Source: Dyella dinghuensis
GTDB taxonomy: Bacteria > Pseudomonadota > Gammaproteobacteria > Xanthomonadales > Rhodanobacteraceae
Reading direction: 5' to 3'
DNA length: 64,000 nt
NCBI RefSeq assembly: GCF_003977615.1
Contig: NZ_RYZR01000003.1
Span: forward strand, 62,001 to 126,000
Shown here: piece by piece, positions 14,782-30,828 of the stretch
How the letters are laid out: every line of letters begins with the position of its first letter
Numbering within the stretch: the first letter of the stretch is position 1
Made by a program: the position numbers and the translations under genes
Notes under the pieces: model-generated
The model's input: only the letters and a program-made list of their open reading frames with translations
Told to the model about the DNA's origin: nothing
The model's database searches: none

Positions 14782-15834
14782 TCATGCCGTGCTTTTAAAA
14801 GCCATCAAAGTCGGCCTGTAATGAGCCAGCTTGCTCGCTTCGATGACCAGTTGCTGCACACGTTCGGAATATCCGAGCAACGTTTCAAATGGGTCGGGCG
14901 TAAGTGAGAGATACTTCTCGTCATGCGGCGCGGGAGCCAGTCGAATCGTCTTAATAGTTCCTACCAAAGGAGCCGTCGCCTCTCTTAGTCGCAACATAGC
15001 TGCCGCAGGGTTGGCCGCCAACGGCTGACGGTGCACCATCTGATTGCGAACATCACTGAGCTTGCGTAGCCATTGGGGCAATTCTTTTGTGCCCCAGGCT
15101 GACGTTAATAATTTCGTGAGCGGCTCTGCAGCGTGGTGTTGGTTGGCTTCCTTCTTTAGCCACGCTTCCAGGCGAATCATATCGTCTAGGGATTCTTTAG
15201 CACCTACGTGCAGCGCTGCAATGCGAACCAGATGATCTCGAGCACTGCACAGCTCGGATGCCAGAGAGTGGAAGGCTACGTACAAATCCAACAGCGGCAC
15301 GTTTTTAAAACCGACCGTGACCTCCTTCTTGCGCAGCAAGGCCTCGATCAACTGAGCATGATGACACTTAGCCACGTCACGCAGACGCACACCCGCAGCT
15401 TGCATCGACACAGAGACATACCTTGCGGCATCCGCATAGGTATCGTTCTTGTCTAAATGCGCTCCAGTCGAAATAGCTGCCCACGTATCGGCACCGCTGA
15501 GTCCATTGGTCATCAGGCTATCACGAGGACGCCAGATTTCCGTGGATGCAATGCCATCATCAATGATCTGATTGGTGCCGACTGTTTGAACGCCAAGGTT
15601 TTTTGTCGCTTCAGCCAAGGCATGGTTGGATGGAAGAACTGTATGTTCAACTTTACCGTCGTTCCAGACAGGAGCCAGGCCAAATTTACCGCCATCTAAC
15701 GGGAACGAGATTAGACCGCCGGTACAATACGTAACAGACCTATATGCGGCGGCGCCATGAGAAACATCGGACACATCCACGGCATGATTTTGTTGTGACT
15801 CCATCCGGATCGATCTCCTAAGCAGATTTAGCAT
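14782..15834 (-). CDS. Protein of unknown function with HEPN-like RNxxxH motif
   Basis: A 350-residue soluble, mostly helical protein. Near residue 265 it has KLSDVRNQMVHRQP, close to the RxxxxH motif of HEPN domains (Cthe_2314-type proteins have similar D-R-N-H patterns). HEPN proteins are often RNases in conflict systems, but this is a motif-level match only. Start is uncertain: ATG 15834 has a G-run 15 bases upstream, while the internal ATG at 15804 has AGGAG 10 bases upstream. It is monocistronic as far as can be seen. Confidence 0.6.
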   Translation of the reverse strand: MLNLLRRSIRMESQQNHAVDVSDVSHGAAAYRSVTYCTGGLISFPLDGGKFGLAPVWNDGKVEHTVLPSNHALAEATKNLGVQTVGTNQIIDDGIASTEIWRPRDSLMTNGLSGADTWAAISTGAHLDKNDTYADAARYVSVSMQAAGVRLRDVAKCHHAQLIEALLRKKEVTVGFKNVPLLDLYVAFHSLASELCSARDHLVRIAALHVGAKESLDDMIRLEAWLKKEANQHHAAEPLTKLLTSAWGTKELPQWLRKLSDVRNQMVHRQPLAANPAAAMLRLREATAPLVGTIKTIRLAPAPHDEKYLSLTPDPFETLLGYSERVQQLVIEASKLAHYRPTLMAFKSTA

Positions 15835-15873
15835 GCCGGTTATTTTTCCCCCTTAGGCGACATCACCGGCATG
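15832..15873. promoter_or_regulatory. Spaced 9-bp inverted repeat at the start of the HEPN-like gene
   Basis: CATGCCGGT (15832-15840) and ACCGGCATG (15865-15873) are perfect inverted arms 24 bases apart, one covering the upstream ATG. It could be a repressor site or an mRNA hairpin that hides that start. Confidence 0.3.
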
Positions 15874-15981
15874 AGGCTCGCCGGACAATACCGCGCCGAC
15901 GAAGCCTTACAGGATGGATGACAAAGTTAGCCCGCTCTCACTAGTACCGTGGGCCAAATGGAGGGGTATGACCCGCTTAAA

Positions 15982-17607
15982 CTACCAATTGGAATCATTG
16001 GTGGATGGTGTTTCCTTTGATTTAGCAGTTGCGTGAGGTTTTGCGTGTTGCTCAGATCGCGCTGATGCCGTTGTGCTAGAGGGTGTATTCATGGCGATCT
16101 GTTTACGGAGCTCCATGCTTCCAGGAGTGAAGGATGCGTCCATATGAACATTGTCTTCCACGATATGTCCATACGAGAGGTTGGGGGTTACGCGATCGAT
16201 CTGCACACTGCAGCATGGTGTTTCCATGGGACCTAGCGATTGACCCGACTGCGGATCAACGATCGGCTTACCAAGGTTGACTGCCTGATAGGTAGCGCCT
16301 TCTTGAACTGCATCACCGCCCTGGTTGATGACGACGTTGCGGCCCTGAAGCTGCAATACCGAAAGTGGGTACGTGCTTTGCAAAATTGACGTGATGATGC
16401 TGCGGTCCATTGCGTCCATCATGTCAGAGGCTAGCTTGTTGCCATCCACCGAGACGCCCATGGTCGTGGGTTCTGTGGAAGGAAAGGCATAGTTGAACGA
16501 CTGCGACATGACCAATTGACCCGTTGCAGCATTGACCACGCGGAACGACACCTCGCCGCCGCCGGAATAACTCACCAGCGTGCGATTTGCCATACGCAAA
16601 GCTTGCTCGTGCCGCACATATTCAAACCGATTGATGGTCGGAATGACGATCAAATCGGTCGCTAATTGCTGACCCAGCCTTGCGGTATCGGAGGGCGTTG
16701 CGTTACCCGACTGGATGAGGCCGATTTCTTGATTAATCTGCGCATCCGCCGTGCGATCCAGGACCGTAAAACGATGGGTCTGGGTCAGTGCTTCGGCAAT
16801 CTTGGATTGAATGTCCGACGCAATGGAGTCGGCCGGGATGGTGTTATCGCCAACCTGGAACGTGGCGCCTTGGACTTGCGGTTGGGCCACGACCACGCGG
16901 GTCAATTTGGCGCTCGCAGCTTCACGGTAGGTGGCGACATCGGCACCAATGCGAACTTCCCATTGCGAGGCATATTCGGTGTGCTTCCCTTGATAGTCCA
17001 CCTGCGCCGCGCCTTGGTGTTGATCCCAGGAACCTTTAACGCCCTCGGCTACATTCGCCGACGCATCGCCTCCTGATGCATTAGCGCTAGCAGAGGCATC
17101 CACATTGCCCTTATTCCAGCTTGCCCCCTGGTTGGCTTTGAGGCTTTCTTCGTCCGTGCTGGTCGGTGTGTTGACTTGTTTCTGCGACAGCAACTGGAAA
17201 TGCGAGACAGCACCCGAGGTCGCACTGGCGACCCAATTGGCATAGGCCGATGAAGAGACATCCGCGCTTTGACCGCCGGATGAAGCGCTTACACCCGTCG
17301 CAAATTGGGCGGTGCCCCCACTGACTTGCTTACCGTTGACCTCTTCAATGGCCATCCGAATGGCGTTGTCGACTGCCGCTTCCAGGGTAGGGCCTGTCGC
17401 AGTCACTTCGACATGCTGTGTGGTCACGCCGCCAAAGTCTGGATTAGTGCGGATCGGTTTGGGCGTCTGCGCAACGGCTTGGCTTGCCGCCACGGATGGC
17501 GTCGCAGCCGCAGTGGTGGAGGGAGCCGCATGCTGCTGGCAAGCGGCCAATGACACGGTGGCCAAAAGGCCACCGTAGATGAGTTTCAACCTATAAGAGG
17601 GGGTCAT
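15982..17607 (-). CDS. Outer-membrane lipoprotein, CsgG/FlgT-like
   Basis: The ATG at 17607 opens a signal peptide with lipobox LAAC near residue 23, so this 541-residue protein should be a lipoprotein. Residues 50-80 (VEVTATGPTLEAAVDNAIRMAIEEVNG) match the FlgT_N/CsgG-associated pattern, and the centre (SIASDIQSKIAEALTQTHRFTVLDR, then DLIVIPTINRFEY) is CsgG-like, the nucleotide-independent outer-membrane assembly fold. A Ser/Ala/Gly-rich segment interrupts the two. It is last in a four-gene minus-strand operon of exported proteins. No curli subunit genes are present, so the secreted substrate is unknown. Confidence 0.65.
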   Translation of the reverse strand: MTPSYRLKLIYGGLLATVSLAACQQHAAPSTTAAATPSVAASQAVAQTPKPIRTNPDFGGVTTQHVEVTATGPTLEAAVDNAIRMAIEEVNGKQVSGGTAQFATGVSASSGGQSADVSSSAYANWVASATSGAVSHFQLLSQKQVNTPTSTDEESLKANQGASWNKGNVDASASANASGGDASANVAEGVKGSWDQHQGAAQVDYQGKHTEYASQWEVRIGADVATYREAASAKLTRVVVAQPQVQGATFQVGDNTIPADSIASDIQSKIAEALTQTHRFTVLDRTADAQINQEIGLIQSGNATPSDTARLGQQLATDLIVIPTINRFEYVRHEQALRMANRTLVSYSGGGEVSFRVVNAATGQLVMSQSFNYAFPSTEPTTMGVSVDGNKLASDMMDAMDRSIITSILQSTYPLSVLQLQGRNVVINQGGDAVQEGATYQAVNLGKPIVDPQSGQSLGPMETPCCSVQIDRVTPNLSYGHIVEDNVHMDASFTPGSMELRKQIAMNTPSSTTASARSEQHAKPHATAKSKETPSTNDSNW

Positions 17608-17617
17608 CGCGCTAGCC

Positions 17618-18286
17618 TTATTCGAGCCCGCCCAGTGCCTGGGTCGCATCGGAGGGCACCTTGACGCCGTTGTTCTGGCTGATGGTCATCGTTTTGCGGA
17701 ATACGTCAAACAAGTTCTTGGAATAGGAGGGCGTCGACTTCGCGACAAAAGCGCCGGCCTTCAACTTGGTCATACCGCTGGTCAGGCCCGACAAGCCACT
17801 CATCGACCCCTTTGCAGTCGTAGTGAACTTCTCCGCCTGGACGATGACGTCATGCGTGCCGAGCACACCTTTGGCAAAGTGGGGCAGGCTTTGCGCGTAA
17901 TACTCTTTTTCTTCGGCCGTCAGCGTGGCCTGTTTGGCCTGCTGCGCGGTGATCTCATCGTTAGCTTTGCTGGAGATGTCCACGGTCTTTTCAAGTGTCT
18001 CCGTATCGAGGCTCGTGCTCTGCAGTGCTTTTTGCTGGTCATCGCACAGTTTGGCTTGATCCTTCAGGCCATAGGCCTGGGCCAAGAGTGATTGAGCGGC
18101 CAGCACTTCGCTCTGCGATGCCACGAAAGATTTGACGAGCGCATCTTGTGCGGCCAGTGCGTCGGTCGATGAACCGGAAGAGGTGCTGCTCAGCGACGTC
18201 GGAAGATGAAACTGTGCGCTTGCGGAGGTGGCTGCAAAAAGACCGACAGTGATGCTCGCGGCGAGAAAAAGTTTGGATGATTTCAT
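17618..18286 (-). CDS. Exported protein of unknown function
   Basis: A 222-residue protein with a cleavable signal ending near SASAQ, then largely helical sequence with heptad-like spacing that may form coiled coils. GGGG lies 8 bases before the ATG. It is third of four genes in an exported operon with CsgG/FlgT-like partners, 10 bases upstream of the lipoprotein gene. No family was recognised; a periplasmic adaptor role is possible. Confidence 0.6.
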   Translation of the reverse strand: MKSSKLFLAASITVGLFAATSASAQFHLPTSLSSTSSGSSTDALAAQDALVKSFVASQSEVLAAQSLLAQAYGLKDQAKLCDDQQKALQSTSLDTETLEKTVDISSKANDEITAQQAKQATLTAEEKEYYAQSLPHFAKGVLGTHDVIVQAEKFTTTAKGSMSGLSGLTSGMTKLKAGAFVAKSTPSYSKNLFDVFRKTMTISQNNGVKVPSDATQALGGLE

Positions 18287-18333
18287 GATGTGTCCCCTGT
18301 GATAGTGATTGGTTTACGCAACCTTGCGTGGAA

Positions 18334-19446
18334 TCAATGGATGCCTTTGTTGCTCAGCTCATCCACCATCTGATGGGCGGCTTGGCTGGCGGCTTCTTTG
18401 AGCGCGTTGGTGCGGGCAACGGATGCATCCGGACCCAACCCGGCGTATTGCACCGGCCCAATCGAGGCGAGCGTGCGCGCGAAGCGTCCTTGAACGTTGA
18501 ACACCTTGCCGGTGACGGTGACAAAGACGCGCATGTTGCCGCTGACGGGGTCGCGATCGGGCATGCCGACGTCTAACGTGCCCAGAGCGAAGTAACCGAT
18601 GCCTGCCCGCTGCACGCCTTGCGTGGTGTTGTACATCACCGTGGAGGGCAGGTCGTTGCCATGGCTGTATGCATCGCGAATGTTGGCGATGTTGACGAGG
18701 CCACCGCTTGCACCTTCAACTTGATCCGCTTCAACCACGTCGTAGCCAGCGTCCGAGAAGACACCTGTCATGGCAGTGTCAACCTCGCCGGCGTTAGTGA
18801 CGCTCCAATCCACCTTGTCGGCCTTACGGGTCACGCTGCCACCGGTAGTGGTCGCATCGCTCGTGTGCTGCTGCATGCTGTCGGTAGTGCTGACGTCGTG
18901 GGCCTGGACGGACTCGCCTTCATTGGTAGAGCGCGACATGCTGTTGTCGACGTCTGTACGCTTGTAGACCTTGTCGTCGAAGCTCTGCACACTGGACTGG
19001 TTACGTGCCAGGAATAGGAACGTCATGGTTCCACGGCCCGAAGCAGCGATATCGGATGCGGAAGCCGAGCCAGTGCCAAGGTCATTCATCAGTCGCGTGC
19101 TGTTGATGTCGGCACGGATCACGACACTATACGTCTTGGCTTGTTTGTCTTGGTTTTCGGTCAGGACGGTGGTGCCCAGGATGTAATCATCGATATGGGC
19201 AGTAATGCGATCGCGCTGTGCTTCAAAGATACGAGACTTCGCCGCATTGCTATCGGCGATATAGCGCTCCAAGGCATTGGCTTCGGCTTTCCTCAAGGCG
19301 TTTTGGCGCTCGGGGGCGCCCAACGACCAGCCCGTATACTCCACGTTGGCCATCCCCTTTTCGGAAACAGTTTGCGCGTGCACAGGAACGACCAGCGCGG
19401 CAACGCTGAAAGCCAGCGCGCCGATAAGCCACGGCTTCATCGACAT
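18334..19446 (-). CDS. Exported FlgT_N-like protein
   Basis: A 370-residue protein with a signal peptide ending near VHAQ. Residues 35-120 (NALRKAEANALERYIADSN ... ILGTTVL ... TYSVVIRADIN) match the FlgT_N/SHOCT-type pattern seen in flagellar T-ring proteins and CsgG-linked proteins. A Ser/Thr-rich linker follows, then a globular domain with repeated TLDVGMP and VFVTVTGKVF strands. The start overlaps the end of the preceding gene by 10 bases, so the operon is tightly coupled. The exact role is unknown. Confidence 0.6.
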   Translation of the reverse strand: MSMKPWLIGALAFSVAALVVPVHAQTVSEKGMANVEYTGWSLGAPERQNALRKAEANALERYIADSNAAKSRIFEAQRDRITAHIDDYILGTTVLTENQDKQAKTYSVVIRADINSTRLMNDLGTGSASASDIAASGRGTMTFLFLARNQSSVQSFDDKVYKRTDVDNSMSRSTNEGESVQAHDVSTTDSMQQHTSDATTTGGSVTRKADKVDWSVTNAGEVDTAMTGVFSDAGYDVVEADQVEGASGGLVNIANIRDAYSHGNDLPSTVMYNTTQGVQRAGIGYFALGTLDVGMPDRDPVSGNMRVFVTVTGKVFNVQGRFARTLASIGPVQYAGLGPDASVARTNALKEAASQAAHQMVDELSNKGIH

Positions 19447-20651
19447 GATTGGATTAACTCCCCTAGAGATGAAAACTGATCACGGGCTTGCTTGTCGTCT
19501 GACAAGCCTGACTTCAACCATGGGTTGTTGGAGTCAGAAAGTGAGCGCGTGAAATTGTCAAAAAGGCTAAGCAGGGTGTCGTGCGTTGCCGGCCAGTCGT
19601 CCACGGAGGTCTGCGTGATAGGCACCGTCTTGGACTCGCCCTGCTTGACGCGTTGCGAGAAATAGACGTTGCCCGACAGCGGTTCGAGGACGCTGATGTC
19701 AACAAACGCTCCATAGAGGAACAGAGCATCGACACTGGTCTGAGACTGGGCAATTTTCTTGAAGCCCGCGACGTTCAAGTGAATGTCGTAATCGGCTTCG
19801 GGGATCTTTAAATCGTAGACTTCTCCTTCGATGAACCGCGCGGCCATCGAGGAGCCCAGTGCTTGATTGCTGCTGTAGGGCAGCACTGAAAGGTGTTGGT
19901 TGGTGCCCAAGTAGGTACCAAATGCTTCGGCGACTTCTTGGGGAAGTGTGGAGGCGTCAACTTGAGGTGCGTATTGGTGCAGGTAATCAAGCGCTTTCGG
20001 CCCCAAGGTGGAAGAAGTCACTCGAAGATGTTTGTTCGACGCCAACGGTACGGAAGCACGGGCCAGTGTTTTGGCAAACTCACTGGCCAAATCGTGTTGC
20101 CCCGGCGCACCAAAGAGAAGGTTGTGATACGCAGCTTGTATTTGTTCATCGCTCGGCAGGGTCGGGCTTACGTCGATGAAATCGATGATGAAAGGAAAGC
20201 CGCCGAGCACTTGCTTCTCTTTGAAGTCAAAGAAGAGCGCTTGGGCCGACACTTCGATGCGCAACTTGTAGACGCTGCCGATGTGTTCGACCGAGGTGGT
20301 TTCACGATCCACGCCAAGCGCCAATGCTGTGGAATTGGCGGCGTCCTTGATGGAACCCAGTGAATCAAAGGCAATCGTTTCAGGAAGCGTTTGACTTTGG
20401 AGGAACGTTCGAACGCGCTGGTTAAGTGCCGCATCACCGCCGCTGGCCAGTGCGGTCGAAACGTGCGGAAAAGCTTGGCCGATGGCGGCGGCGTTGCTCG
20501 TATACGCGACCCCAGCAAAGTAGACCTTGCTGTCCGGAGACGTGGCCATGCTGGGCAGAGCCAACAATAAACAGCCTAGGAAGGCCGTTCCGCTCATTAA
20601 TCGGCGGAGAAATAGCGCGGCTCGGTCGCGACGCCAAAGTGCTGGAAGCAT
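19437..20651 (-). CDS. Exported protein, first gene of the CsgG/FlgT-like operon
   Basis: A 404-residue protein starting at an ATG with AAGGAG 8 bases upstream. The N-terminus has a basic stretch and then a hydrophobic signal (GTAFLGCLLLALPSMAT), so the mature protein is periplasmic or surface-exposed. No conserved motif was recognised. As the first gene of a four-gene minus-strand operon, it probably marks the promoter region just above 20651. Presence of four exported proteins with CsgG/FlgT features suggests one envelope machine. Confidence 0.6.
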   Translation of the reverse strand: MLPALWRRDRAALFLRRLMSGTAFLGCLLLALPSMATSPDSKVYFAGVAYTSNAAAIGQAFPHVSTALASGGDAALNQRVRTFLQSQTLPETIAFDSLGSIKDAANSTALALGVDRETTSVEHIGSVYKLRIEVSAQALFFDFKEKQVLGGFPFIIDFIDVSPTLPSDEQIQAAYHNLLFGAPGQHDLASEFAKTLARASVPLASNKHLRVTSSTLGPKALDYLHQYAPQVDASTLPQEVAEAFGTYLGTNQHLSVLPYSSNQALGSSMAARFIEGEVYDLKIPEADYDIHLNVAGFKKIAQSQTSVDALFLYGAFVDISVLEPLSGNVYFSQRVKQGESKTVPITQTSVDDWPATHDTLLSLFDNFTRSLSDSNNPWLKSGLSDDKQARDQFSSLGELIQSCR

Positions 20652-21182: not shown

Positions 21183-22490
21183 CTATTCGTCCGCCTCGGG
21201 GCCTTTGATGGCGTCGTCGAGCGCACGCGTGCGCCGTGCAATTTGCTGTTGGATGGCGTCGCTTTTTGTAAGCCGCGCAGCGCGCGTCGCATAAGAGACG
21301 TAGTTTCGTGGACCAGCGTATAAATAAGAACGATTGAGTTTGCCGCGCTTGATGGCCACTGATGAAAGAGATACACCTTTTACACGGGCTGCCTTTGCTC
21401 TCGCACGCTTCGCTTGTCGCACACCTTTTCGAATTCGGTTGTAGAACCTGGCGACTCCTCCGCTTCGAAGACGCACTTTGCGTCCGTCGTAGGTCAGCCC
21501 GAGGTATTGCAACGCTGGCTTGGTGGTTGTTCCGGGAGCGCCAAAGGCGCATTCCTCGAGCTTCTCCGGTTGCACTTCCAATTTGATGGACGTCACGAGC
21601 GCTTCAATGAACGCCTTAGCCTCAACCGCGTGTTCCGGTGGAACGATGCAGAGAACGTCATCGCAGTATCGACGATAAAGTCCACCCCAGGCCGCAATCT
21701 GTTCCGCGACCTTGCGGTCAAAGTCCAGCATGTAGATGTTGGAAAGCGTTGCACTTATGGGCGTCCCTTGGGGAATGCCTTTATCCAGCTGGTGCACCTC
21801 GATGTGACCCGCATCGGCAATACGCGTCCGGAACGCATTGGGGGTGCACACGCGGGTGCGGCCTGAGGCTTTTGGGGAATGAATGCTGATTCCAAACGTC
21901 GCAAAAAGCGTGGTCTGCTGGACGGCGGAATAGCGGGTGAGTGATCGGTAAATCGCGTAATGATCCGCGGGCAGCGATCGCTCCTTGATGATGTCGGCCC
22001 ACTTGTCTCGCAATATCCGATGATTGAGGTTGTCGAAGAAGCCGCTGATGTCGTAGGCGAGTGCAACGCAGGGGCGGTGCGTTTTGATCCACTCAAATGC
22101 TTCGCGTGCGAAATGAATGTTGCATCGACCGTCACCGGTTCGAAATGCGGTCACTACCTCACTCAGGCCGAGCGTATGCAAGCGTTGCTCGTATTGCTTG
22201 GTCAGCTTTGCCGAGTAATAAGCGTATAACGCCGCGTCATGATGGGACGCGTAGCTGATGGGGCGAAGTTTCGGCTTGGGCGTGAATACCGTCCCTTGGC
22301 GTTTGATCTTGCGAATTACCTTGATCTGCGTAATCAAGGGCAAGAATTCCCACCTGGCTACGTGCGCAGGGTCGGCGACTGCCGCAGCGATCACGCTTCG
22401 GCGTGGCGGCTCATCGAAGTGAAGGTAGGGACGAGTGCGTAGTGGGTCGTTGCCCATAGTTAGCTGAGGGAGAGGGATGCGGCTACCCAT
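21183..22490 (-). CDS. Defence-associated reverse transcriptase, DRT2 (UG2)-like
   Basis: A 435-residue stand-alone reverse transcriptase with no integrase, maturase or retron partner. Visible motifs are RPISYASHHD (residues 76-85), YDISGFFDNLNH with catalytic D147, GIPQGTPISATLSNIYM (238-254), and the YCDD active site (275-278), followed by a basic thumb. The PYLHFD start and the 'RPI.YASH.D' segment resemble DRT2-type antiphage enzymes, which copy a structured upstream RNA by rolling circle into a concatemeric gene. ATG 22490 has GAGGGG 6 bases upstream; M12 is an alternative. RT family certain, DRT2 subtype likely. Confidence 0.8.
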   Translation of the reverse strand: MGSRIPLPQLTMGNDPLRTRPYLHFDEPPRRSVIAAAVADPAHVARWEFLPLITQIKVIRKIKRQGTVFTPKPKLRPISYASHHDAALYAYYSAKLTKQYEQRLHTLGLSEVVTAFRTGDGRCNIHFAREAFEWIKTHRPCVALAYDISGFFDNLNHRILRDKWADIIKERSLPADHYAIYRSLTRYSAVQQTTLFATFGISIHSPKASGRTRVCTPNAFRTRIADAGHIEVHQLDKGIPQGTPISATLSNIYMLDFDRKVAEQIAAWGGLYRRYCDDVLCIVPPEHAVEAKAFIEALVTSIKLEVQPEKLEECAFGAPGTTTKPALQYLGLTYDGRKVRLRSGGVARFYNRIRKGVRQAKRARAKAARVKGVSLSSVAIKRGKLNRSYLYAGPRNYVSYATRAARLTKSDAIQQQIARRTRALDDAIKGPEADE

Positions 22491-22800
22491 GCTACCCCCC
22501 TCAGCTTCCGGAATCCCGAAGGATTCTCGATAGGGCGTCGCCCCATCGCCGCTGGTGCAATCACACTGATATTAAACTGCTCACTGAGGATTACTCGCGT
22601 GGACATCTCTGCCCAGCTCATCGTTGCTCAGCTACTCGGAACAATGTGGTTCGGTGGCCGGGAGTCCCGGACGCCGATTGACATTGCAATGAGCGCCCAC
22701 ACCGCTCACGCCTGGTGTGGTGGGTATTGATTGGGGATGGCTTTGGTCCATTTCAAGGGGTGCCCTGAACAGGGCAATCACCCTACCTGAACGCACCGAT
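22491..22800 (-). ncRNA. Candidate structured RNA template upstream of the DRT2-like RT
   Basis: Gene-free DNA directly upstream of the RT contains several strong hairpins. Plus-strand positions are: GAATCC/GGATTC with a TTCG loop in the minus-strand RNA (22511-22526); a 9-bp stem at 22528-22548; CCGGG/CCCGG (22658-22670); CCACACC/GGTGTGG (22697-22720); and TGCCCT/AGGGCA (22761-22776). DRT2 systems encode their template RNA in exactly this place and orientation. The ends are guesses, and no promoter was identified. Confidence 0.45.
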
Positions 22801-22934
22801 CGGCGCGCGCATTTGCAATAGAGCGTCCCATCTAAAAACGCTTTCGCATGCGACGCCTCGGTGAACACGTTCACGAAGAAAAAGATGGCGCGTCGCCCCC
22901 ATTGCTCGCCGTCCGCGTTGATCTCTTCCCGCAA
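22632..22934 (-). pseudogene. Fragment of a 'FVNVFTE..HA.AFL.G.LY' protein gene
   Basis: A TTG-initiated frame encodes FFFVNVFTEASHAKAFLDGTLYC near its N-terminus, which resembles the opening of a common hypothetical family found in accessory regions. After this the frame is low-complexity and ends at 22632, with none of the family's remaining length. I read it as a truncated leftover. It overlaps the proposed structured RNA, so part of that region may be relic coding sequence. Confidence 0.3.
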
Positions 22935-22935
22935 A

Positions 22936-22961
22936 GGGTGGGCGCGTCACGCGCGCCACCC
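22936..22961 (-). terminator. GC-rich hairpin between the 191-residue membrane gene and the RT region
   Basis: GGGTGG-CGCG pairs with CGCG-CCACCC around a 5-nt loop with one bulged G. It lies 30 bases beyond the stop of the minus-strand membrane gene and is followed by TTTG on that strand, a weak U-tract. Confidence 0.45.
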
Positions 22962-22991
22962 TGTTTCTTACTTTTGTCGTAATGCGTTTAC

Positions 22992-23567
22992 CTACAACTG
23001 CGCCAATAACCAAGGATTGTCTTTCTCGGCTTCACGGAATGCCCAGGGGAGCATGGCGCGCGTCTGCCGGTAGGCGTTGATGCATTCTTCCGGTGACGGT
23101 GGGTTCCGCGGTCCGATGGCCCGGTCTGCCATGCTCATTCCGGGTGTTTCATAAACCGCCTTCATTGCATCCGTCGTCGTGGTCAACGCATCCTTGTTCG
23201 GTTCCATGGAGCAGGCAATCACCCCGGCCATCGCTTCGTCCTGCGCCGCTTTAGGTAGGCCCATGGTCGTCGACACGGTCATGAAGGAACCGGTGAGGGA
23301 GAGCAGAGCCTGCTGACGATTCCCATTGGTGAGCGGACTTTCAAAAAAGAAATGACCCATCCCACCCAAACCAAAGGCAGCAATCGCCACGACATAGACC
23401 CATGGGACATCGCCTTCTCCGATACGCAATGACCTGAGGGTCACGATCGTGCCGGCTGACACGGTGGCGAGCGCCTGCCACCACAGTCCGTGCCACACGT
23501 CCATGACCGTCCACACGAGGGTCACGGCTGCGATCACGCTGATCGCACCGAGTTTCAATTTCCACAT
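22992..23567 (-). CDS. Membrane protein divergent from the CBASS operon
   Basis: ATG 23567 has GGAG at good spacing. The 191-residue product has three N-terminal hydrophobic helices in the first 80 residues and a soluble C-terminal part of about 110 residues (PPSPEECINAYRQTR ... AFREAEKDNPW). No family was recognised. It is read away from CapV with about 270 bases between them, and sits between two defence modules. It may be an accessory defence gene or unrelated cargo. Confidence 0.55.
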   Translation of the reverse strand: MWKLKLGAISVIAAVTLVWTVMDVWHGLWWQALATVSAGTIVTLRSLRIGEGDVPWVYVVAIAAFGLGGMGHFFFESPLTNGNRQQALLSLTGSFMTVSTTMGLPKAAQDEAMAGVIACSMEPNKDALTTTTDAMKAVYETPGMSMADRAIGPRNPPSPEECINAYRQTRAMLPWAFREAEKDNPWLLAQL

Positions 23568-23838
23568 GAGGTTCTCCAAGGGGCGGCCAGGGGATTGGCC
23601 GAGAGGCTATCGACCCGCCGGCGCGAAACTTGAGGGCTGCTGGCTCAGACAGTTGTCCTCCGGGAGCGGTTTGAATCGATCCAAAACCACTACTAATGGG
23701 TGTCAGTACGCCTGGACCACACAAAGTGTTGGGTTCGATCTTGAAAAATGTGACGCGCGTCCACATGCGTCCGATTGAGGCCCGGCGAGGGACCTGGCAG
23801 CGACCGGGGTCCGGGCTCACCGTTTGTGGGGTATTGAT

Positions 23839-24861
23839 ATGGCTGAATCTATGGCCTGCCAGGGCCAAATTCTTGCGTTGTCCGGTGGCGGCTTCCGGGG
23901 GTTGTATAGCGCCAAACTGCTGGCGTCCCTAGAAGAGGCGGCCGGTCAGCCCATCGCGCGCCATTTTGACCTACTGGGCGGCACATCCATCGGCGGCATC
24001 CTCGCGCTGGCTCTTGCCTGCGAAATCCCTACATCACGGTTGGTCGGCCTGTTCGAAGAACACGGCGACAGCATCTTCAAGCGTCGCTCGTGGTCCGGCA
24101 TCTTCCAGTCGCTGTATTCGCCGACGGGGTTGGCGAATCTTCTGGCGAGCGAGGATATCTTCGGCAAGCGCAAGCTGGGTGACTGCGTCCATCGTGTGAT
24201 CGTGCCTGCGATCAATTACGGCACCGGCAATCCCACCGTTTTTAAAACGCCCCATGATCCTTCGTTCCGGAATGACTACAAACTGCGGCTGGTCGATGTC
24301 GCGTTGGCCACCAGTGCAGCGCCTCGGTATTTCCCACGTCACGTCGTCGATGATAGGCAGTTTGTGGATGGTGGGCTCTTCGCCAATTCGCCCGGATTGC
24401 TCGCCCTTCATGAAATGGAGCACTTCATGGACGTGCCTGCTTCGGCGGTGCGACTACTTTCGATCGGAACGATGTCGGTAAAGGTCAACGCCGGGCCTGC
24501 CGAAAGTGGAAGCGGTGGCATGTTCGATTGGGGAACGCTCAACCCATTGAACATGCCCAAGCGGCTTTTCGGTTTGGCCATCTCATCCAGTGAGACCACG
24601 ACGGATTACATGTTGCGCCATCGCCTCACAGAGGAGCGTTATTTCCGCGCGGACGATAATGTTGATGGCACGTTGGAAAAATCGGTGGAGTTGGATTGCA
24701 CCAATGAGAAAGCGCGGCGCATTTTGCGCAGGTTTGCCGATGATCGCGCTCGCAAGATGTTGAACGAACCACTCATTCGGAAGTTGTTGGCGTATTCGGC
24801 TGCTACGAACACCTTCCATTACGGCGCCCGCGCGGTGCGAGGAGAACAAGCCTATGCGTAA
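23839..24861 (+). CDS. capV: CBASS effector CapV, patatin-like phospholipase (system 1)
   Basis: A 340-residue patatin-fold enzyme. The oxyanion loop SGGGFRG is at residues 15-21, the nucleophile Ser50 sits in GTSIG (48-52), and the catalytic Asp177 is in DGG. In CBASS, CapV is switched on by the cyclic dinucleotide from its partner CD-NTase and degrades inner-membrane phospholipids, killing or arresting the infected cell. I choose ATG 23839 over a TTG 15 bases earlier. The stop overlaps the CD-NTase start by 8 bases, so this is the first gene of a four-gene operon of V. cholerae-like order. Confidence 0.93.
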   Translation: MAESMACQGQILALSGGGFRGLYSAKLLASLEEAAGQPIARHFDLLGGTSIGGILALALACEIPTSRLVGLFEEHGDSIFKRRSWSGIFQSLYSPTGLANLLASEDIFGKRKLGDCVHRVIVPAINYGTGNPTVFKTPHDPSFRNDYKLRLVDVALATSAAPRYFPRHVVDDRQFVDGGLFANSPGLLALHEMEHFMDVPASAVRLLSIGTMSVKVNAGPAESGSGGMFDWGTLNPLNMPKRLFGLAISSSETTTDYMLRHRLTEERYFRADDNVDGTLEKSVELDCTNEKARRILRRFADDRARKMLNEPLIRKLLAYSAATNTFHYGARAVRGEQAYA

Positions 24862-26014
24862 GTTTCATGCCCTGTTCGCCGGTAGTGGCGGCCTTTATGA
24901 CGCCATCGTCCCCACGAGCACTCAAGAAAGTGCATTACGAGCAGCAAAGAATAAAATTCGCGATCATCTGCTGCGTGGCATCGAAGCCGCGTCTATGGAT
25001 ATCTTGGGTTTACCGCAAAAAGTGTCACCGCGTTTTAAAACGCAGGGTTCGTGGGCTTATCGGGCATGCGTTCAACCTGCACAACCAACCCAGGAGATGG
25101 ATTGGGATTACGGTGTTTATTTGCCCGTCGACGCCTGGGAGGACGCCGCCACTCCCCGCGTGGCGGCGTCCGCTTACTTCGACCTAGTGGAACGCCTGTT
25201 GAAAGAGCTCTGTGAACAAGAAGGGTGGCACCCTGGTAAAAACAAGCCGCGATGTATCCGCGTGCACGTGGGGCAAGGCGCGCACATCGATGTTGCGCTG
25301 TACGCCGCCCCCAAAGAAAAATTTCTGCAGGTCAATGATCGCCATGTGGAATACGCAGATATGCAAAAGGCCATGGATGGCGCGTTGAACCGACAGTTGC
25401 TCGCCGAAGCGTATGAATTCGAACCCGAGCAGGACTGGGACGACTTTGACGACTTCATGGTCGCCACCCGTGATGGAACGTGGGAACGGTCAGACGCGGA
25501 AGCGATTGCGCGTTGGTTTCGCGATCAGGCCGATACTCAGGGTGATCAGTTGCGTCGCTGCTGGCGCTATCTAAAAGCATGGCGCGATATGCAATGGGAG
25601 ACGAACGGTCCGAGTTCAGTGTTGTTGATGCTCGCTGCGACGCGCCACTTTGCAAAATGGCCTGCCCGGGATGATCGCACTTTGGCCGACGTCGCATATG
25701 CCATTGCCGAGGCTGTACTGCACGATTACCACGAAGAGGGTATTGATGCCGATCACAACTTCAATCGCATGGACCCGAAGGGTCGACTGGATGCGCATCA
25801 GCGTCTGACGCAACTGGCCACAACCTTACGCCAGGCCATGACTGAGCCAGGCTTGGACAAGCTTGCCGTGCTGGCGGCACTGCGTGGACATTTCGGTGCG
25901 CGCTTGCCACATCGCGAAGCTGACATCGTAGACGACCATCCGGCTGACCGTATTCGTGCGACGCCAGCCCGCGAGGTGATCGCACCCAAGGTCAATTCGT
26001 CTTATGCGGGGTGA
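24854..26014 (+). CDS. CBASS CD-NTase, DncV-like cyclic dinucleotide synthase (system 1)
   Basis: A 386-residue CD-NTase. The nucleotidyltransferase signature is complete: TQGSWAYRACVQP with G65-S66, EMDWDYGVYLP with metal ligands D83 and D85, and HIDVALY with D146. The overall pattern matches clade A enzymes such as V. cholerae DncV, which makes 3'3'-cGAMP; the actual product is not readable from sequence. The C-terminus ends SSYAG. In type II CBASS a C-terminal Gly/Ala is attached by Cap2 to targets, which primes cyclase activity, so this terminus fits the adjacent Cap2 and Cap3. Confidence 0.93.
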   Translation: MRKFHALFAGSGGLYDAIVPTSTQESALRAAKNKIRDHLLRGIEAASMDILGLPQKVSPRFKTQGSWAYRACVQPAQPTQEMDWDYGVYLPVDAWEDAATPRVAASAYFDLVERLLKELCEQEGWHPGKNKPRCIRVHVGQGAHIDVALYAAPKEKFLQVNDRHVEYADMQKAMDGALNRQLLAEAYEFEPEQDWDDFDDFMVATRDGTWERSDAEAIARWFRDQADTQGDQLRRCWRYLKAWRDMQWETNGPSSVLLMLAATRHFAKWPARDDRTLADVAYAIAEAVLHDYHEEGIDADHNFNRMDPKGRLDAHQRLTQLATTLRQAMTEPGLDKLAVLAALRGHFGARLPHREADIVDDHPADRIRATPAREVIAPKVNSSYAG

Positions 26015-26017
26015 GCA

Positions 26018-27736
26018 ATGATGACACCGGCACAAATCGCGGTGTCCCAATACCTGGTTGAGCGAGGTTTGGCCTATGTCAACCGGCGCAGGGAGACGCT
26101 GCGGTTTCGGGGCAACCTGATGTGTCTATTCGGGGATGTCCCGGTCGAGATCACGATTAGTGACTGGGACTTCATTCGTTATCCACACATTCGGGTGATC
26201 GAACGCCCTGCGTGTCTGGACGGTGTCCAGGCACATTTGAGCGCATTGAATGGACTTTGCTATTTCACGCCCGGATCGGTACTGCTCAACCGCCACGATC
26301 CGGTGGCGGCCGTCGGGCAATGCCTCGCTCAGGCTACCGTAGTATTGAACGAGTTAGCTCGTGATTCCACCTATCGCCAAGGAGAATTCATCCGCGAGTA
26401 TCTGGCGAACTGGGACGCCGGCCAGCAGCCGCCACCAATCCCCGTAGTGAAGGGCTCGATTGCTGACAAGACCACCCACATGAACGTCACCTTCGCGGAA
26501 GGTGGCGAATTCCCCTTTGCGATGTTTGGAGATGACGTTGATCAGCTCCGCTCAATCGTAGTCTCAACGGGCCGCACGCTTCGTGATCGTGGGAACAATT
26601 CGGGATGGGTGTTTCACACCGACCGATGGCCCCCTATGAGTGAGGCATTTCCAAGAACGGTGTATGACCTTTTTACCTGGGCGAAGGCGTGGGATCCCAA
26701 CATGTATCAAGCGCTGCAGGATCGTTTGGGATACGACCGCGCATATCTGAACATGCCTATCCTCTTCCTGATGATCCGAAGCCCAGCTGGCTGGTTGGGT
26801 CTCACTTTCGACCTGGGGGACAGGTCGCAGCGGATCTTGGGGATGCGCAAAGCGACCAATTATCGACAGCGGCTTCATCGGCACAGTCGGGAGATTACCG
26901 TGACGCGTCTTTCCGTCTTGGATTGGAGTCCAGAGTTCGTCTATGCCCGCAACCTAGGGCTCGAGCAAAAGAATTTGTTTGGCAAACGCATTACGCTGAT
27001 CGGTGGCGGAGCCATCGGCAGTCATGTCGCCAAAGCGCTTGTTCAAATGGGCGCAGGCCAAGGAAAGCATGGGCGACTTCGCATCGTGGATCACGACACG
27101 ATGGAAGGTGGCAACGTTAGTCGGAACCTCTTGGGTTATCCCTCCCTGTTCAAATTCAAGGCGACCGAATTGGTCGCTGAGTTGCGACGCTTGCATCCCA
27201 CCGCAAATGTTGAAGAGGAGGTAGGGGATGTGCTGAAGGTGGATGCTTTGTTTCGCGATGACCTAGTGATCGACGCCACGGGTGAAGAAGCGCTGAGTGA
27301 AGCGATCAATGTTCGTCACCTCACGGCAGGAGTGTCGGCGTGTCCGGTCTTATACGTGCGGATCTACGGGCAGGGCGATGCTGTGCAAGCACTGTGGGTC
27401 GACTCCGGACGCAAAGGCGCCTGCTTCGCTTGTTTGCGCAAGAACGATCCGCAAAGCCAACGCGAGCCACGCTTTCGCATCGGCAAGACGGATGAGCCGC
27501 AGTGGGTGATGCGGGGTTGCCAGGCCGTTACGCCTTACGCCGTCTCGGCGCCCATGCACGCTGCTGCGATGGCCAGTGAAATGGTCGCCGATTGGTTGCA
27601 GGGCAACGTGTCGCCGCGTCTTCGTTTCCTGGAACGCCCGAACGCGGATGTCATCCACAACAAGAATCAGAACCCAGAACCATTACCGCATTGCCCGGTG
27701 TGTAGCTCGCCTATCCAAGCGTCAAAGGTGGGGTAA
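26018..27736 (+). CDS. cap2: CBASS Cap2, fused E2-E1 ubiquitin-transfer enzyme
   Basis: A 572-residue E2-E1 fusion. The N-terminal E2-like part contains ALNGLCYFTPG, where C81 is the likely transfer cysteine. The E1 part has the ATP-binding GGGAIGSHVAKAL near residue 330, an NVSRN motif, and a later GCQAVTPYAVSAP segment carrying the probable E1 cysteine. Two CxxC pairs (CFAC and CPVC) form the structural zinc site. Cap2 conjugates the C-terminal residue of the CD-NTase to cellular proteins, raising cyclic nucleotide output. It begins 3 bases after the CD-NTase stop. Confidence 0.93.
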   Translation: MMTPAQIAVSQYLVERGLAYVNRRRETLRFRGNLMCLFGDVPVEITISDWDFIRYPHIRVIERPACLDGVQAHLSALNGLCYFTPGSVLLNRHDPVAAVGQCLAQATVVLNELARDSTYRQGEFIREYLANWDAGQQPPPIPVVKGSIADKTTHMNVTFAEGGEFPFAMFGDDVDQLRSIVVSTGRTLRDRGNNSGWVFHTDRWPPMSEAFPRTVYDLFTWAKAWDPNMYQALQDRLGYDRAYLNMPILFLMIRSPAGWLGLTFDLGDRSQRILGMRKATNYRQRLHRHSREITVTRLSVLDWSPEFVYARNLGLEQKNLFGKRITLIGGGAIGSHVAKALVQMGAGQGKHGRLRIVDHDTMEGGNVSRNLLGYPSLFKFKATELVAELRRLHPTANVEEEVGDVLKVDALFRDDLVIDATGEEALSEAINVRHLTAGVSACPVLYVRIYGQGDAVQALWVDSGRKGACFACLRKNDPQSQREPRFRIGKTDEPQWVMRGCQAVTPYAVSAPMHAAAMASEMVADWLQGNVSPRLRFLERPNADVIHNKNQNPEPLPHCPVCSSPIQASKVG

Positions 27737-28240
27737 GTGGTTTTCGCGAAGCCAATTGGCCAAGACGTCGTACTAGTGAACCCCGTTAATACAGGAGGAT
27801 TAATCCTGCTTGAAGGTGAGGTGTTGGGCGCCATTGCGCGACACCGTCAACGCAGCAAGATCGCTCCAGAACAAGGTGGCGTGTTACTCGGTTATCGCCG
27901 AGATCCCCACTTACACGTTGTATCGGCTAGCTTTCCAGCACGTGGGGACCACGCTACACGCATCTCCTTTAAACGCGAAGACCCCTCGCATGCAGCGAAG
28001 GCTCTTCGAATGTGGAAGAACACCGATCGTAAGATCGACTATCTTGGCGAATGGCACACGCATCCCGAGATGCACCCGAATCCGTCTTCGATAGATAAGC
28101 ACGCGTGGGCGGCCATTCGAGCGGTGACCCATGAAGTAATGTTGTTTGTGATCGCAGGGACCGACGAGGACTGGTGGATCGGATGTGGCGATCACAACGG
28201 TATTGCCCAGGTTGATCCCAAACTCGTCACCGCACCCTAA
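27737..28240 (+). CDS. cap3: CBASS Cap3, JAMM/MPN isopeptidase
   Basis: A 167-residue JAMM-fold zinc peptidase beginning with GTG directly after the Cap2 stop. The active-site set is visible: Glu in PEQGGVLLG (about residue 45), then EWHTHPEMHPNPSSIDKHAW, the H-x-H-P-x(n)-S-x-x-D motif. Cap3 removes the CD-NTase from Cap2-made conjugates and keeps signalling in check. It ends the first CBASS operon. The length and motif are typical for type II CBASS. Confidence 0.92.
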   Translation: MVFAKPIGQDVVLVNPVNTGGLILLEGEVLGAIARHRQRSKIAPEQGGVLLGYRRDPHLHVVSASFPARGDHATRISFKREDPSHAAKALRMWKNTDRKIDYLGEWHTHPEMHPNPSSIDKHAWAAIRAVTHEVMLFVIAGTDEDWWIGCGDHNGIAQVDPKLVTAP

Positions 28241-28270
28241 ATGTGCACAATCCTCATTGAGTCTATGACG

Positions 28271-28289
28271 GGCCGCTACGAAAGCGGCC
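28271..28289. terminator. Hairpin between the two CBASS operons
   Basis: GGCCGCT / AGCGGCC with a 5-nt loop lies 30 bases after the Cap3 stop. No long U-tract follows, so it may only partly stop transcription. The 190-base gap also holds the ribosome site (GAAAGGGG) of the second CapV. Confidence 0.4.
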
Positions 28290-28430
28290 GGAGTTTGAAC
28301 TCAGAGGAGCTCGGCCGCAATTCACACTATTGCGTTTCGGACGCATCTTCGGTGCGTGTTTAATCAGGTAGGGTCGCATTCGCCATTGGCCATGTGTTGT
28401 TCGACAGGTAAATGAAAGGGGTTCAAGCGC

Positions 28431-29423
28431 ATGACTCTCGATAATGATGTGAATCGTGTCGACGACTCGGATTTCCACATACTTGCGCTGTCCGGTGGTG
28501 GTTATCGTGGACTTTATACGGCGCATGTTCTGGAGCGCCTGGAAGAAGAAACAGGGCGACCGATCGGTCAGTGTTTTGATTTGATCGCGGGCACTTCGAT
28601 TGGCGGCATCATCGCGTTAGCCATCGCCTTTGAGGTGCCGATGCGCCGAGTCGTTGAGACTTTCAAGGAGGATGGCCAGACAATCTTTCCGCCCAAGTCG
28701 AAGTTAGCCGGACTTTTCGCCAGCCGATTTCGTACGGAGCCACTAAAAAACGTGATCGCTGGCCTGATTGATCATCAAGCGTTGCTAAGCGATGCGCGGC
28801 ACGCTCTTCTCATCCCGACGCTCAATCTAACCACCGGCAAGCAACAAATCCTAAAGACCCGCCATCATCCTGACTGGGTGCGTGACCATAAATATGCGGC
28901 TATCGACGTGGCGTTGGCAACTGCAGCTGCACCGATTTATTTTCCTGTTGCCGAAATCGACAATCAGCTCTTTGCGGATGGCGGGTTATTTGCCAACGCA
29001 CCCGATTTGGTGGCGTTGCACGAAGCGTCGAAATTCTTTGGCAAACCGGACAATCGTGTGCGCATGCTAAGCATTGGTACGCTCTCTTCAAGATACTCCA
29101 TGCCCCACGGGCGGCGGCGTGATATGGGCGTCGCTCACTGGCTCAAGCCATCGGGCTTTCCATTGCTTCGCACGATCCTCTCTGCCCAACAGCAGTTCTC
29201 TAATCAATTAGTCCAGCATCGATTGGGCGATCAATACCTTCGGATCGACAACACACCTATGGATGATGTGATGCGAAACCTCAACTTGGATAACGCAAGC
29301 TACGCGGCACGGGATGCACTCTTGGGTTGGGCCGCCAAAGATGTAAGCGATGTAATGGGAACAGCGCCGATCAAACAGTTCCTTGCGCACACGCCGGGCC
29401 AATGGATCATCAAGGAATCGTAA
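28431..29423 (+). CDS. Second CBASS CapV-like patatin phospholipase (system 2)
   Basis: A 330-residue patatin with all catalytic elements: SGGGYRG (21-27), GTSIG with Ser56, and DGG with Asp183. It aligns along its length with the first CapV (the segment LALSGGG[FY]RGLY and the DVALAT.AAP.YFP and DGGLFAN.P motifs recur) but is clearly diverged, so it is not a recent duplication. It should also attack membrane phospholipids after nucleotide binding. GAAAGGGG precedes the ATG. One base separates its stop from the second CD-NTase start. Confidence 0.9.
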   Translation: MTLDNDVNRVDDSDFHILALSGGGYRGLYTAHVLERLEEETGRPIGQCFDLIAGTSIGGIIALAIAFEVPMRRVVETFKEDGQTIFPPKSKLAGLFASRFRTEPLKNVIAGLIDHQALLSDARHALLIPTLNLTTGKQQILKTRHHPDWVRDHKYAAIDVALATAAAPIYFPVAEIDNQLFADGGLFANAPDLVALHEASKFFGKPDNRVRMLSIGTLSSRYSMPHGRRRDMGVAHWLKPSGFPLLRTILSAQQQFSNQLVQHRLGDQYLRIDNTPMDDVMRNLNLDNASYAARDALLGWAAKDVSDVMGTAPIKQFLAHTPGQWIIKES

Positions 29424-29424
29424 A

Positions 29425-30828
29425 ATGGGTGCCGCTTCCTCATTATTCTTTAGTTCGACTGCCGATCAGGACTCGCTCAACAAACGCGTACGCCCGAGCG
29501 ACGATCAGATGAACTACCTGCGTGAAAGGAAGGACGATCTAGAGTCTTACCTGCGCCAAGATATCGCACGACGAACGGGTTGTGAGGTATCCACTTGGTT
29601 GCAGGGCTCTTACAAATTGCACACGTTGATTCGCCCCATCCATACCAAAGACGAATACGACGTGGACCTGGGGGTCTACGTAGAATGGGACGCCTTCGAC
29701 CGAGAGAAGTGGACGCACGTACAATTGCGAACGCTGTTGCAAGCCTCGCTGATGGACTACCGCGATAACGTTGATGAAGTCAAAGATATCTCGGAACCAG
29801 CAAAACAGCGGTGCTCCCGAGTCATGTTCGACCAGCAGTTTCACATTGACGTGCCGATTTATCACTTTGAAACCACCACAAAGAATACTCAGTTAGCTAC
29901 TTTGAACAAGGGATGGGAGCAAAGCGATCCCGAGCAGATGTTGAAGTGGTTCCAGGCACGATTGGGCGGCCCAGAACGAGCCCGGGTGAGACGCGTCGTG
30001 CGATACGTCAAGGCTTGGGCCTCGCTCACTTTCGCCGAGCAGCCTAAAATGCGGCCGAGCTCGTTGTTTCTAACTGTCTTGTGCGTAGATGCCTTCGTGG
30101 CGCATATCGGTGACCGCGAACTGCAGGACGATGACCTGCTGCAGGAGATCGTGGTGGCTATCGAGGAACGGCTGCGCGCCGACCCGCGTGTAGAAAACCC
30201 CGTAGCAACTGATCATGATCGGAATATCAATCGTTTGGACGACAATGCGTTCCGTACCTTCATGACGAAGCTACGCGCATTCGCCAGTACGGCTACGCGT
30301 GCTTGCGAATGCGAAGAAGAGGGCGATGCGGCAATAGTTTGGGCCGAAGCTTTTGACTTTCTTTTTCCATTGCCCGATGTTGAGGGTCTAGCCAAGGCCA
30401 TGCCGGGTACGGGATTGATGGTGTCGACACCCGTCATCGCCATCGACATTCACGGCAAGGACGGGCACTTTGCCCGACGCTATACAGGTGAAGTCGAATT
30501 CGTTCGTCTCGGTGAAACGCTGGATTTTCACATTACCAATCCCGGCGTTTTGCCGCCACTTGCGCGCGTCAGGTGGGTAGTGCGCAATGTCGGCGATGAG
30601 GCCTTTCGCAAGAACGATCTCGGACATAGCGCATACGACACGGGCGGTTTATCACGGAACGAGCGTGCCGCGTATCTAGGTCGACATTTCATGGATTGCG
30701 AAGTCTACCAGGGGGATACAATCCATTCGGTCACACGCGTGCCCGTCAACATCATTGGTATGCAAATGCCAAATCGCCATCCGCCGCGACCGGCCTATCG
30801 GCTATTGGCAGGTCGACGTCGGCGCTAA
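29425..30828 (+). CDS. Second CBASS CD-NTase with C-terminal AGS-C-like sensor domain (system 2)
   Basis: A 467-residue CD-NTase starting at ATG 29425, just after CapV2. The catalytic core is intact: LQGSYKLHTLIRP (G61-S62), EYDVDLGVYVEWD (D79, D81) and FHIDVPIYH (D142). The C-terminal 130 residues (from about DIHGKDGHFARRYTG, with FRKNDLGHSAYDTGG) resemble the adenylyl/guanylyl and SMODS C-terminal sensor domain (AGS-C). Unlike the first enzyme it ends in GRRRR, not Gly or Ala, and no Cap2 or Cap3 follows. It therefore fits a two-gene type I CBASS. Product unknown. Confidence 0.88.
   Translation: MGAASSLFFSSTADQDSLNKRVRPSDDQMNYLRERKDDLESYLRQDIARRTGCEVSTWLQGSYKLHTLIRPIHTKDEYDVDLGVYVEWDAFDREKWTHVQLRTLLQASLMDYRDNVDEVKDISEPAKQRCSRVMFDQQFHIDVPIYHFETTTKNTQLATLNKGWEQSDPEQMLKWFQARLGGPERARVRRVVRYVKAWASLTFAEQPKMRPSSLFLTVLCVDAFVAHIGDRELQDDDLLQEIVVAIEERLRADPRVENPVATDHDRNINRLDDNAFRTFMTKLRAFASTATRACECEEEGDAAIVWAEAFDFLFPLPDVEGLAKAMPGTGLMVSTPVIAIDIHGKDGHFARRYTGEVEFVRLGETLDFHITNPGVLPPLARVRWVVRNVGDEAFRKNDLGHSAYDTGGLSRNERAAYLGRHFMDCEVYQGDTIHSVTRVPVNIIGMQMPNRHPPRPAYRLLAGRRRR

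What the first reader, a model, noticed from the sequence alone, without database searches (positions are those of the whole stretch)
21183..22800. DRT2-like reverse transcriptase with a hairpin-rich non-coding leader
The RT keeps the YCDD centre and has DRT2-like N-terminal motifs. Immediately upstream on the same strand are several strong hairpins, where DRT2 systems encode their rolling-circle template RNA. If true, concatemeric copying would create a hidden open reading frame (neo) absent from the linear genome.
Basis: partly seen in the sequence, partly recalled or inferred. Interest (0 to 1): 0.7.

Follow-up and report, generated by a model that had tools for sequence, protein, structure and literature searches.

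The report
DRT2 phage-defence locus hiding a gene
A Dyella-type bacterium carries a known kind of anti-phage reverse transcriptase whose neighbouring RNA, if copied head to tail, would spell out a promoter and an endless protein-coding gene absent from the linear genome, and this copy uses a different joining signal from the studied example.

Summary
Frame 22490..21183 (435 aa) is a Drt2 (UG2) reverse transcriptase: NCBIfam 470.5 bits, cut-off 390; PADLOC 470.9; solved Drt2 chains at about 1e-89. Its true start is probably 22457, because a conserved RNA hairpin covers the listed start. Upstream, 22458-22723 is an RNA conserved in three relatives, with covarying helices. Its template, 22561-22689, is 129 nt (3 x 43) and open in one antisense frame. 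Joined head to tail it creates TTGACA-18-TAAACT, GAGG and a GTG start. All four loci of this clade share this design. The full signature appears in 1 of 2000 shuffles.

Differences from Klebsiella-type DRT2: Rfam's RT-12 RNA model, which hits 6 of 24 other loci given, misses this clade. The ACA/ACA jump motif is replaced by TTG/TTG, and by TTA/TTA in one relative.

This is a divergent DRT2, not a new kind of system. No RNA, cDNA or Neo protein has been observed; the mechanism is inferred from published work on the Klebsiella system.

The parts
21183..22457 (-). Drt2 reverse transcriptase, from the likely true start ATG at 22457 (listed frame starts at 22490)
   Evidence: start
22458..22723 (-). 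DRT2-type non-coding RNA (5' end uncertain; no transcript data)
   Evidence: conservation in L003, L005, L006, covariation, fold z -4.02
22697..22720 (-). 5' hairpin (SL1 / 5' handle counterpart)
   Evidence: 3 of 9 pairs changed on both sides, no cell broken; coordinates
22561..22689 (-). predicted reverse-transcription template, 129 nt
22687..22689 (-). TTG-1, first base triplet of the template (at the place of ACA-1)
22558..22560 (-). TTG-2, just 3' of the template (counterpart of ACA-2)
22458..22557 (-). 3' scaffold with conserved hairpins
22462..22506 (-). last scaffold hairpin, covering the listed RT start codon
   Evidence: 11 outer pairs unbroken in 4 of 4; coordinates
22678..22683 (+). 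-35 element TTGACA of the neo promoter; usable only across a repeat junction
22573..22578 (+). -10 element TAAACT of the neo promoter; 18 nt from the -35 only across a repeat junction
22586..22589 (+). Shine-Dalgarno-like GAGG of neo
22599..22601 (+). proposed GTG start of neo; 43 codons per turn of the concatemer

Best explanation
A DRT2 abortive-infection system of a divergent clade. Shown here by sequence: a Drt2 enzyme, a conserved structured RNA just upstream, a 129-nt template bounded by identical TTG triplets, and a promoter, ribosome site, start codon and stop-free frame that come together only across a head-to-tail junction. Inferred from the Klebsiella system: the RT holds the RNA scaffold and copies the template; the cDNA end, copied from TTG-1, re-pairs with TTG-2 and copying starts again; phage infection boosts this and gives a double-stranded concatemer; the junction promoter is transcribed and a repeating, hydrophobic 43-residue Neo protein is made from the GTG, arresting the cell before phage is released.
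For: Drt2 membership. Covarying RNA. 129 nt and the same open antisense frame in 4 of 4 clade loci, with TTGACA-18-TAAACT/TATACT/TAAAGT/TAAACT, SD and GTG. Full signature in 1 of 2000 shuffles and in none of at most 3000 random window stretches. Without demanding length or openness, 129 is still the top unit in 4 of 4. The same scan gives published-type units at RT-12 loci: 120, 129, 111, 111, 117. TTG/TTG and TTA/TTA change together. Hydrophobic frame, GRAVY 0.64; 35 of 3233 open shuffled frames reach it. The linear region has no sigma-70-type promoter. A GUG start partly preserved defence in Klebsiella mutants (PMC11100668 passage).
Against: No RNA, cDNA or protein data. No RT-12 hit. ACA is absent at the ends. 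The -10 matches 4 of 6 and no promoter for the RNA itself was found. The SL2 base stem was not confirmed. Codon-position counts show no third-position excess. The four loci are related, so not independent. Openness alone is common (1924 of 2000 shuffles hold some open unit).
Confidence: 0.87

Rival explanations
1. The RNA is a DRT2 template, but the repeat unit is the 78 nt between two ATGTC copies (window minus strand, starting at 22684 and 22606), giving a shorter hidden frame.
For: 78 nt and at least one open antisense frame in 4 of 4 clade loci; a 5-nt match at both ends.
Against: No -10 at 16-18 nt from TTGACA across that junction (best 2 or 3 of 6); the SD and the -10 lie outside this unit; it is far shorter than the published 111-129.
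Confidence: 0.05
2. A Drt2 RT that copies the RNA but acts through the cDNA itself or another product, without a translated neo, as PMC11100668 allows for divergent clades.
For: RT-12 does not match; ACA absent; no codon-position signal; weak -10.
Against: Junction promoter, SD, GTG and open frame kept together in 4 of 4; rare in shuffles.
Confidence: 0.06
3. A decayed or silent locus: the RT and RNA are remnants.
For: No recognisable promoter for the RNA by a simple scan.
Against: Intact frame with YCDD; compensatory changes kept in the RNA.
Confidence: 0.02

Closest known systems
DRT2 of Klebsiella pneumoniae (UG2 RT; PMC11100668, PMC12039810)
   Same: Drt2 RT of similar length with YCDD; upstream RNA of about 270-280 nt; central template copied antisense; -35 and -10 meet only at the junction; unit divisible by three and stop-free; start codon after an SD; 129-nt units are reported among its close homologues
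   Different: Published ends are ACA/ACA, here TTG/TTG; promoter spacer 18 instead of 17; GTG instead of ATG start; RNA scaffold not recognised by RT-12; RT on a separate branch
Rfam RF03016, RT-12 RNA
   Same: Lies directly upstream of drt2 in L013, L014, L016, L089, L091, L094, the place of the scaffold here
   Different: No hit in the window or in L003, L005, L006
Drt2 loci of Dyella sp. OK004 (L006/L008) and Dyella psychrodurans (L003/L009)
   Same: RT 76% and 61% identical; same 129-nt design
   Different: L006 carries TTA/TTA; L003 has only TTG in common at its ends and a better -10, TATACT

Membership tests
DRT2 (UG2) | RT of the Drt2/UG2 family with intact YCDD | tested here: met
DRT2 (UG2) | structured RNA directly upstream on the same strand | tested here: met
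DRT2 (UG2) | template unit divisible by three, stop-free antisense, spanning the junction | tested here: met
   129 nt, 4 of 4 loci
DRT2 (UG2) | sigma-70-type promoter formed only across the junction | tested here: met
   TTGACA-18-TAAACT across the junction, none in the linear region; the -10 matches 4 of 6
DRT2 (UG2) | matching short motifs at both template ends | tested here: met
   TTG/TTG within ATTGCA/ATTGCA
DRT2 (UG2) | phage-induced concatemeric cDNA, Neo protein and growth arrest | not testable with these tools
   needs experiment
Klebsiella-type DRT2 (RT-12 clade) | match to RF03016 RT-12 | tested here: not met
Klebsiella-type DRT2 (RT-12 clade) | ACA-1 and ACA-2 at the template ends | tested here: not met
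   TTG at both places
[quoted passage not shown]
   a stem is possible in the window and L006; own-partner pairing is weaker than cross-pairing in L003 and L005

The most novel reading that the evidence does not exclude
In DRT2 the joining signal is any short matched pair rather than ACA: this Dyella-group clade runs on TTG/TTG or TTA/TTA, other loci seem to use GCA, AGA or CGTT, and hidden neo genes extend to lineages that current RNA models do not recognise (this clade, perhaps Verrucomicrobiota too).
Probability: 0.6. Interest if true: 0.55.

Novelty: new variant of a known kind. Interest (0 to 1): 0.45.

Why it matters
Tang et al. write that Neo was harder to annotate in more divergent DRT2 clades and suggest that other mechanisms may act there (PMC11100668, section 10). 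Here one clade outside Rfam's RT-12 model keeps the whole logic once ACA is not required. The step from TTG/TTG to TTA/TTA is a natural compensatory test of template jumping by microhomology. A search rule built on matched ends plus a junction promoter could reveal genes that linear annotation cannot see.

Tried and rejected
A 78-nt unit between two ATGTC copies: also open in 4 of 4, but no -10 across its junction; kept as a rival only.

Codon-position test of neo: no third-position excess (differences at positions 1, 2, 3: window-L006 7, 2, 6; the other five pairs nearly even); the BLOSUM sum is highest in the neo frame in 4 of 6 pairs. Not used as support.

SL2: folding the 5' flank against the 3' part gave the strongest pairing for window (-13.5) and L006 (-11.6), but L003 and L005 pair better with each other's partner (-10.9, -9.7) than with their own (-5.8, -6.8). 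Not confirmed.

Model R1 (scaffold of four loci) over 52 sources: 4 seeds, L010 (E 0.087), L016 (E 0.12) and three plus-strand echoes of the last hairpin (E 0.59-2.4). The L016 place overlaps its RT-12 hit, a weak link. I gave it 52 sources, not all loci held.

Unconstrained scan, 14 loci: the open unit divisible by three came first in L004 (the window), L003, L005, L006, L011, L014, L089, L094; second in L013 and L091; L016's first is a doubtful 87; L010, L012, L015 gave none. In one search it came first in L098, second in L099; none of the five candidates shown for L100 was open. Units for L010, L012, L015 (129, 123, 117) come from the looser scan, which demands length and openness, so they are only suggestive. 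L007 gave none.

The RNA has only 2 short chance matches in plasmids. Drt2 was found in 5 of 233 family genomes, own genome included. Phage records hold 3 partial distant relatives, viral contigs 2. The search for DRT2 with Dyella, Rhodanobacter, Luteibacter or Verrucomicrobia showed 10 of 420 papers, none with DRT2; this does not prove absence.

A count was mended: RT-12 hits are 6 of 24 distinct loci (L092 was given twice), not 25.

Full report
What is there. The reverse transcriptase frame is 22490..21183 on the minus strand, 435 aa with Y-C-D-D. It is a Drt2: NCBIfam NF041746 470.5 bits, cut-off 390; PADLOC Drt2 470.9 and 460 bits, next family RT_UG17 at 86.4; solved Drt2 chains at 1.1e-89 to 4.6e-87, next RT at 8.8e-05. 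Pfam sees only RVT_1. The genome (G000, 4.2 Mb, 12 contigs) has two RVT_1 genes: this one and one resembling retron RTs. L003 comes from a genome of the same genus whose contig length equals that of D. psychrodurans NZ_QRBF01000001.1, so the host is a Dyella-group bacterium.

The RNA. I aligned 600 nt upstream of the RT from the window and four family loci. From 22723 to 22458 (minus) the window, L003, L005 and L006 align over 269 columns at 82% mean column identity; L007 aligns poorly. The window stretch folds with z -4.02. On the four sequences a 65-pair structure keeps 95.0% of cells paired (91.4 shuffled), has 14 cells changed on both sides (6.8 shuffled, 0 of 500 as high), and falls to 38-51% when slid; further pair types are not in excess (150 of 500). 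The structure was derived from these sequences. The 5' hairpin has 3 of 9 pairs changed on both sides and none broken. The last hairpin, 22506-22462, covers the listed start at 22490, so the RT most likely starts at 22457.

The hidden gene. In Klebsiella DRT2 the template is antisense to neo; TTGACA lies near one end and TATAAT near the other, and head-to-tail joining puts them 17 bp apart. Repeat lengths of 111, 117, 120 and 129 are reported, and the ends carry ACA. I read PMC12039810 sections 4, 10 and 23, and PMC11100668 section 5 part 1, section 10, section 18 part 1 and passages. In the window the unit from TTG at 22689 to the next TTG at 22560 is 129 nt. Its reverse complement, repeated, is open in one frame only and reads TLILNCSLRITRVDISAQLIVAQLLGTMWFGGRESRTPIDIAI per turn; TTGACA, 18 nt and TAAACT span the junction; GAGG and GTG follow. 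The same holds in L003 (TATACT), L005 (TAAAGT) and L006 (TAAACT): 4 of 4 have 129 nt and the same open frame. These four are related and not independent events.

Is it chance? A scan demanding a length divisible by three, an end match of at least 5, a perfect -35, a -10 of at least 4 of 6 at 16-18 nt and an open frame finds only this unit in the window's upstream region. It finds one in 1 of 2000 dinucleotide shuffles (2 of 2000 without openness), and none in at most 3000 random window stretches; draws starting at 21900-23300, about 2%, were skipped. Dropping the demands on length and openness, 129 is still first in 4 of 4. Shuffles reach the observed score in 4, 16, 1 and 0 of 400, and with openness in 1, 1, 0 and 0 of 400, for window, L003, L005 and L006. 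Openness alone is common: 3233 of 15000 frames of shuffled units. The frame is hydrophobic (GRAVY 0.64, 1.03, 1.15, 0.72; 35 of 3233 open shuffled frames reach the window's value), as is reported for Neo. Codon-position counts do not show selection on the protein.

Controls on known-type loci. Rfam RF03016 (RT-12) hits directly upstream of drt2 in 6 of 24 distinct loci given: L013, L014, L016, L089, L091, L094. There my scans give 120 (L013), 129 (L014), 111 (L089), 111 (L091) and 117 (L094); L016 stays unclear. In the scan without length demand the true-looking unit is second, not first, in L013 and L091. A second E. coli locus, L099, gives 117 with ACA, also in second place.

What differs. 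The window and L003, L005, L006 have no RT-12 hit. On an 87-row RT tree (85 of 95 loci with a hit, after dropping duplicates, fragments and two short rows, plus the window and the PDB row; quick method) the four form one branch (support 100). They group with L007 and Verrucomicrobiota L010, L011, L012, L015 (98), apart from the branch of the six RT-12 loci and the PDB row (98). The tool warns of unusual composition for the window and its kin and of a long branch for L007. At the ACA-1 place, three bases before TGTCAA, window, L003, L005 and L006 have TTG, TTG, TTG and TTA, and the 3' end has TTG, TTG, TTG and TTA. L094, L013 and L089 have ACA/ACA, L014 GCA/GCA; L091 shows AGA/AGA, placed closer to TGTCAA; L098 shows CGTT/CGTT. 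What seems to be kept is the match. L006 differs from the window at 15 of 129 template positions, yet this base changed alike at both ends. PMC11100668 reports that mutants breaking the ACA match lose defence, which fits.

How it probably works. By analogy, the RT holds the scaffold and copies the template from 22561 towards 22689; its cDNA end re-pairs at TTG-2 and rounds repeat; phage infection triggers more synthesis and a second strand; the junction promoter gives a stopless mRNA; Neo arrests the cell. Every step beyond the sequence anatomy is inference from the two Klebsiella papers. Loose ends: a -10 of 4 of 6, no promoter found for the RNA by a simple scan, SL2 not confirmed, and L007 without a unit.

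Surroundings. Beside it on the plus strand lie a patatin effector, a CD-NTase, an E1-E2 and a JAB gene (23824-28240), which I read, from recall of gene order, as a type II CBASS operon, and a second patatin and cyclase (28431-30828); a phage-type integrase gene follows (32046-33167, minus). This looks like a defence island. The searches (listings and starts of abstracts) showed no report on this clade. PMC12596737 was seen as passages only; the word Neo does not occur in its main text.

Noticed in passing
23824-30828 (+): Two neighbouring CBASS-like operons: patatin, CD-NTase, E1-E2, JAB, then a second patatin and a second CD-NTase (AGS_C/SMODS type); the two patatins are 39% identical over 312 aligned positions.
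   Followed up: partly
32046-33167 (-): Phage-type integrase gene at the edge of the defence cluster, suggesting a mobile island; no tRNA in the window.
   Followed up: no
L002 (G000:C10:44395-44940 and around): The genome's second RT resembles retron RTs (PADLOC RT_VI 231.8 bits, RT_V 224.8).
   Followed up: no
L007:2776-3048 (-): Divergent Drt2 of the same family: a long open antisense frame with GAGGA and GTG but no TTGACA or clear jump pair.
   Followed up: partly
L010, L011, L012, L015 upstream of drt2: Verrucomicrobiota loci show possible units of 129, 126, 123 and 117 nt with TATAAT/TATAGT/TACAGT-type -10s and an ATG downstream; suggestive only, since the scan demands openness.
   Followed up: partly
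14782-20651 (-): Five minus-strand genes; one (15982-17649) has a CsgG-like domain, four had no Pfam match.
   Followed up: no
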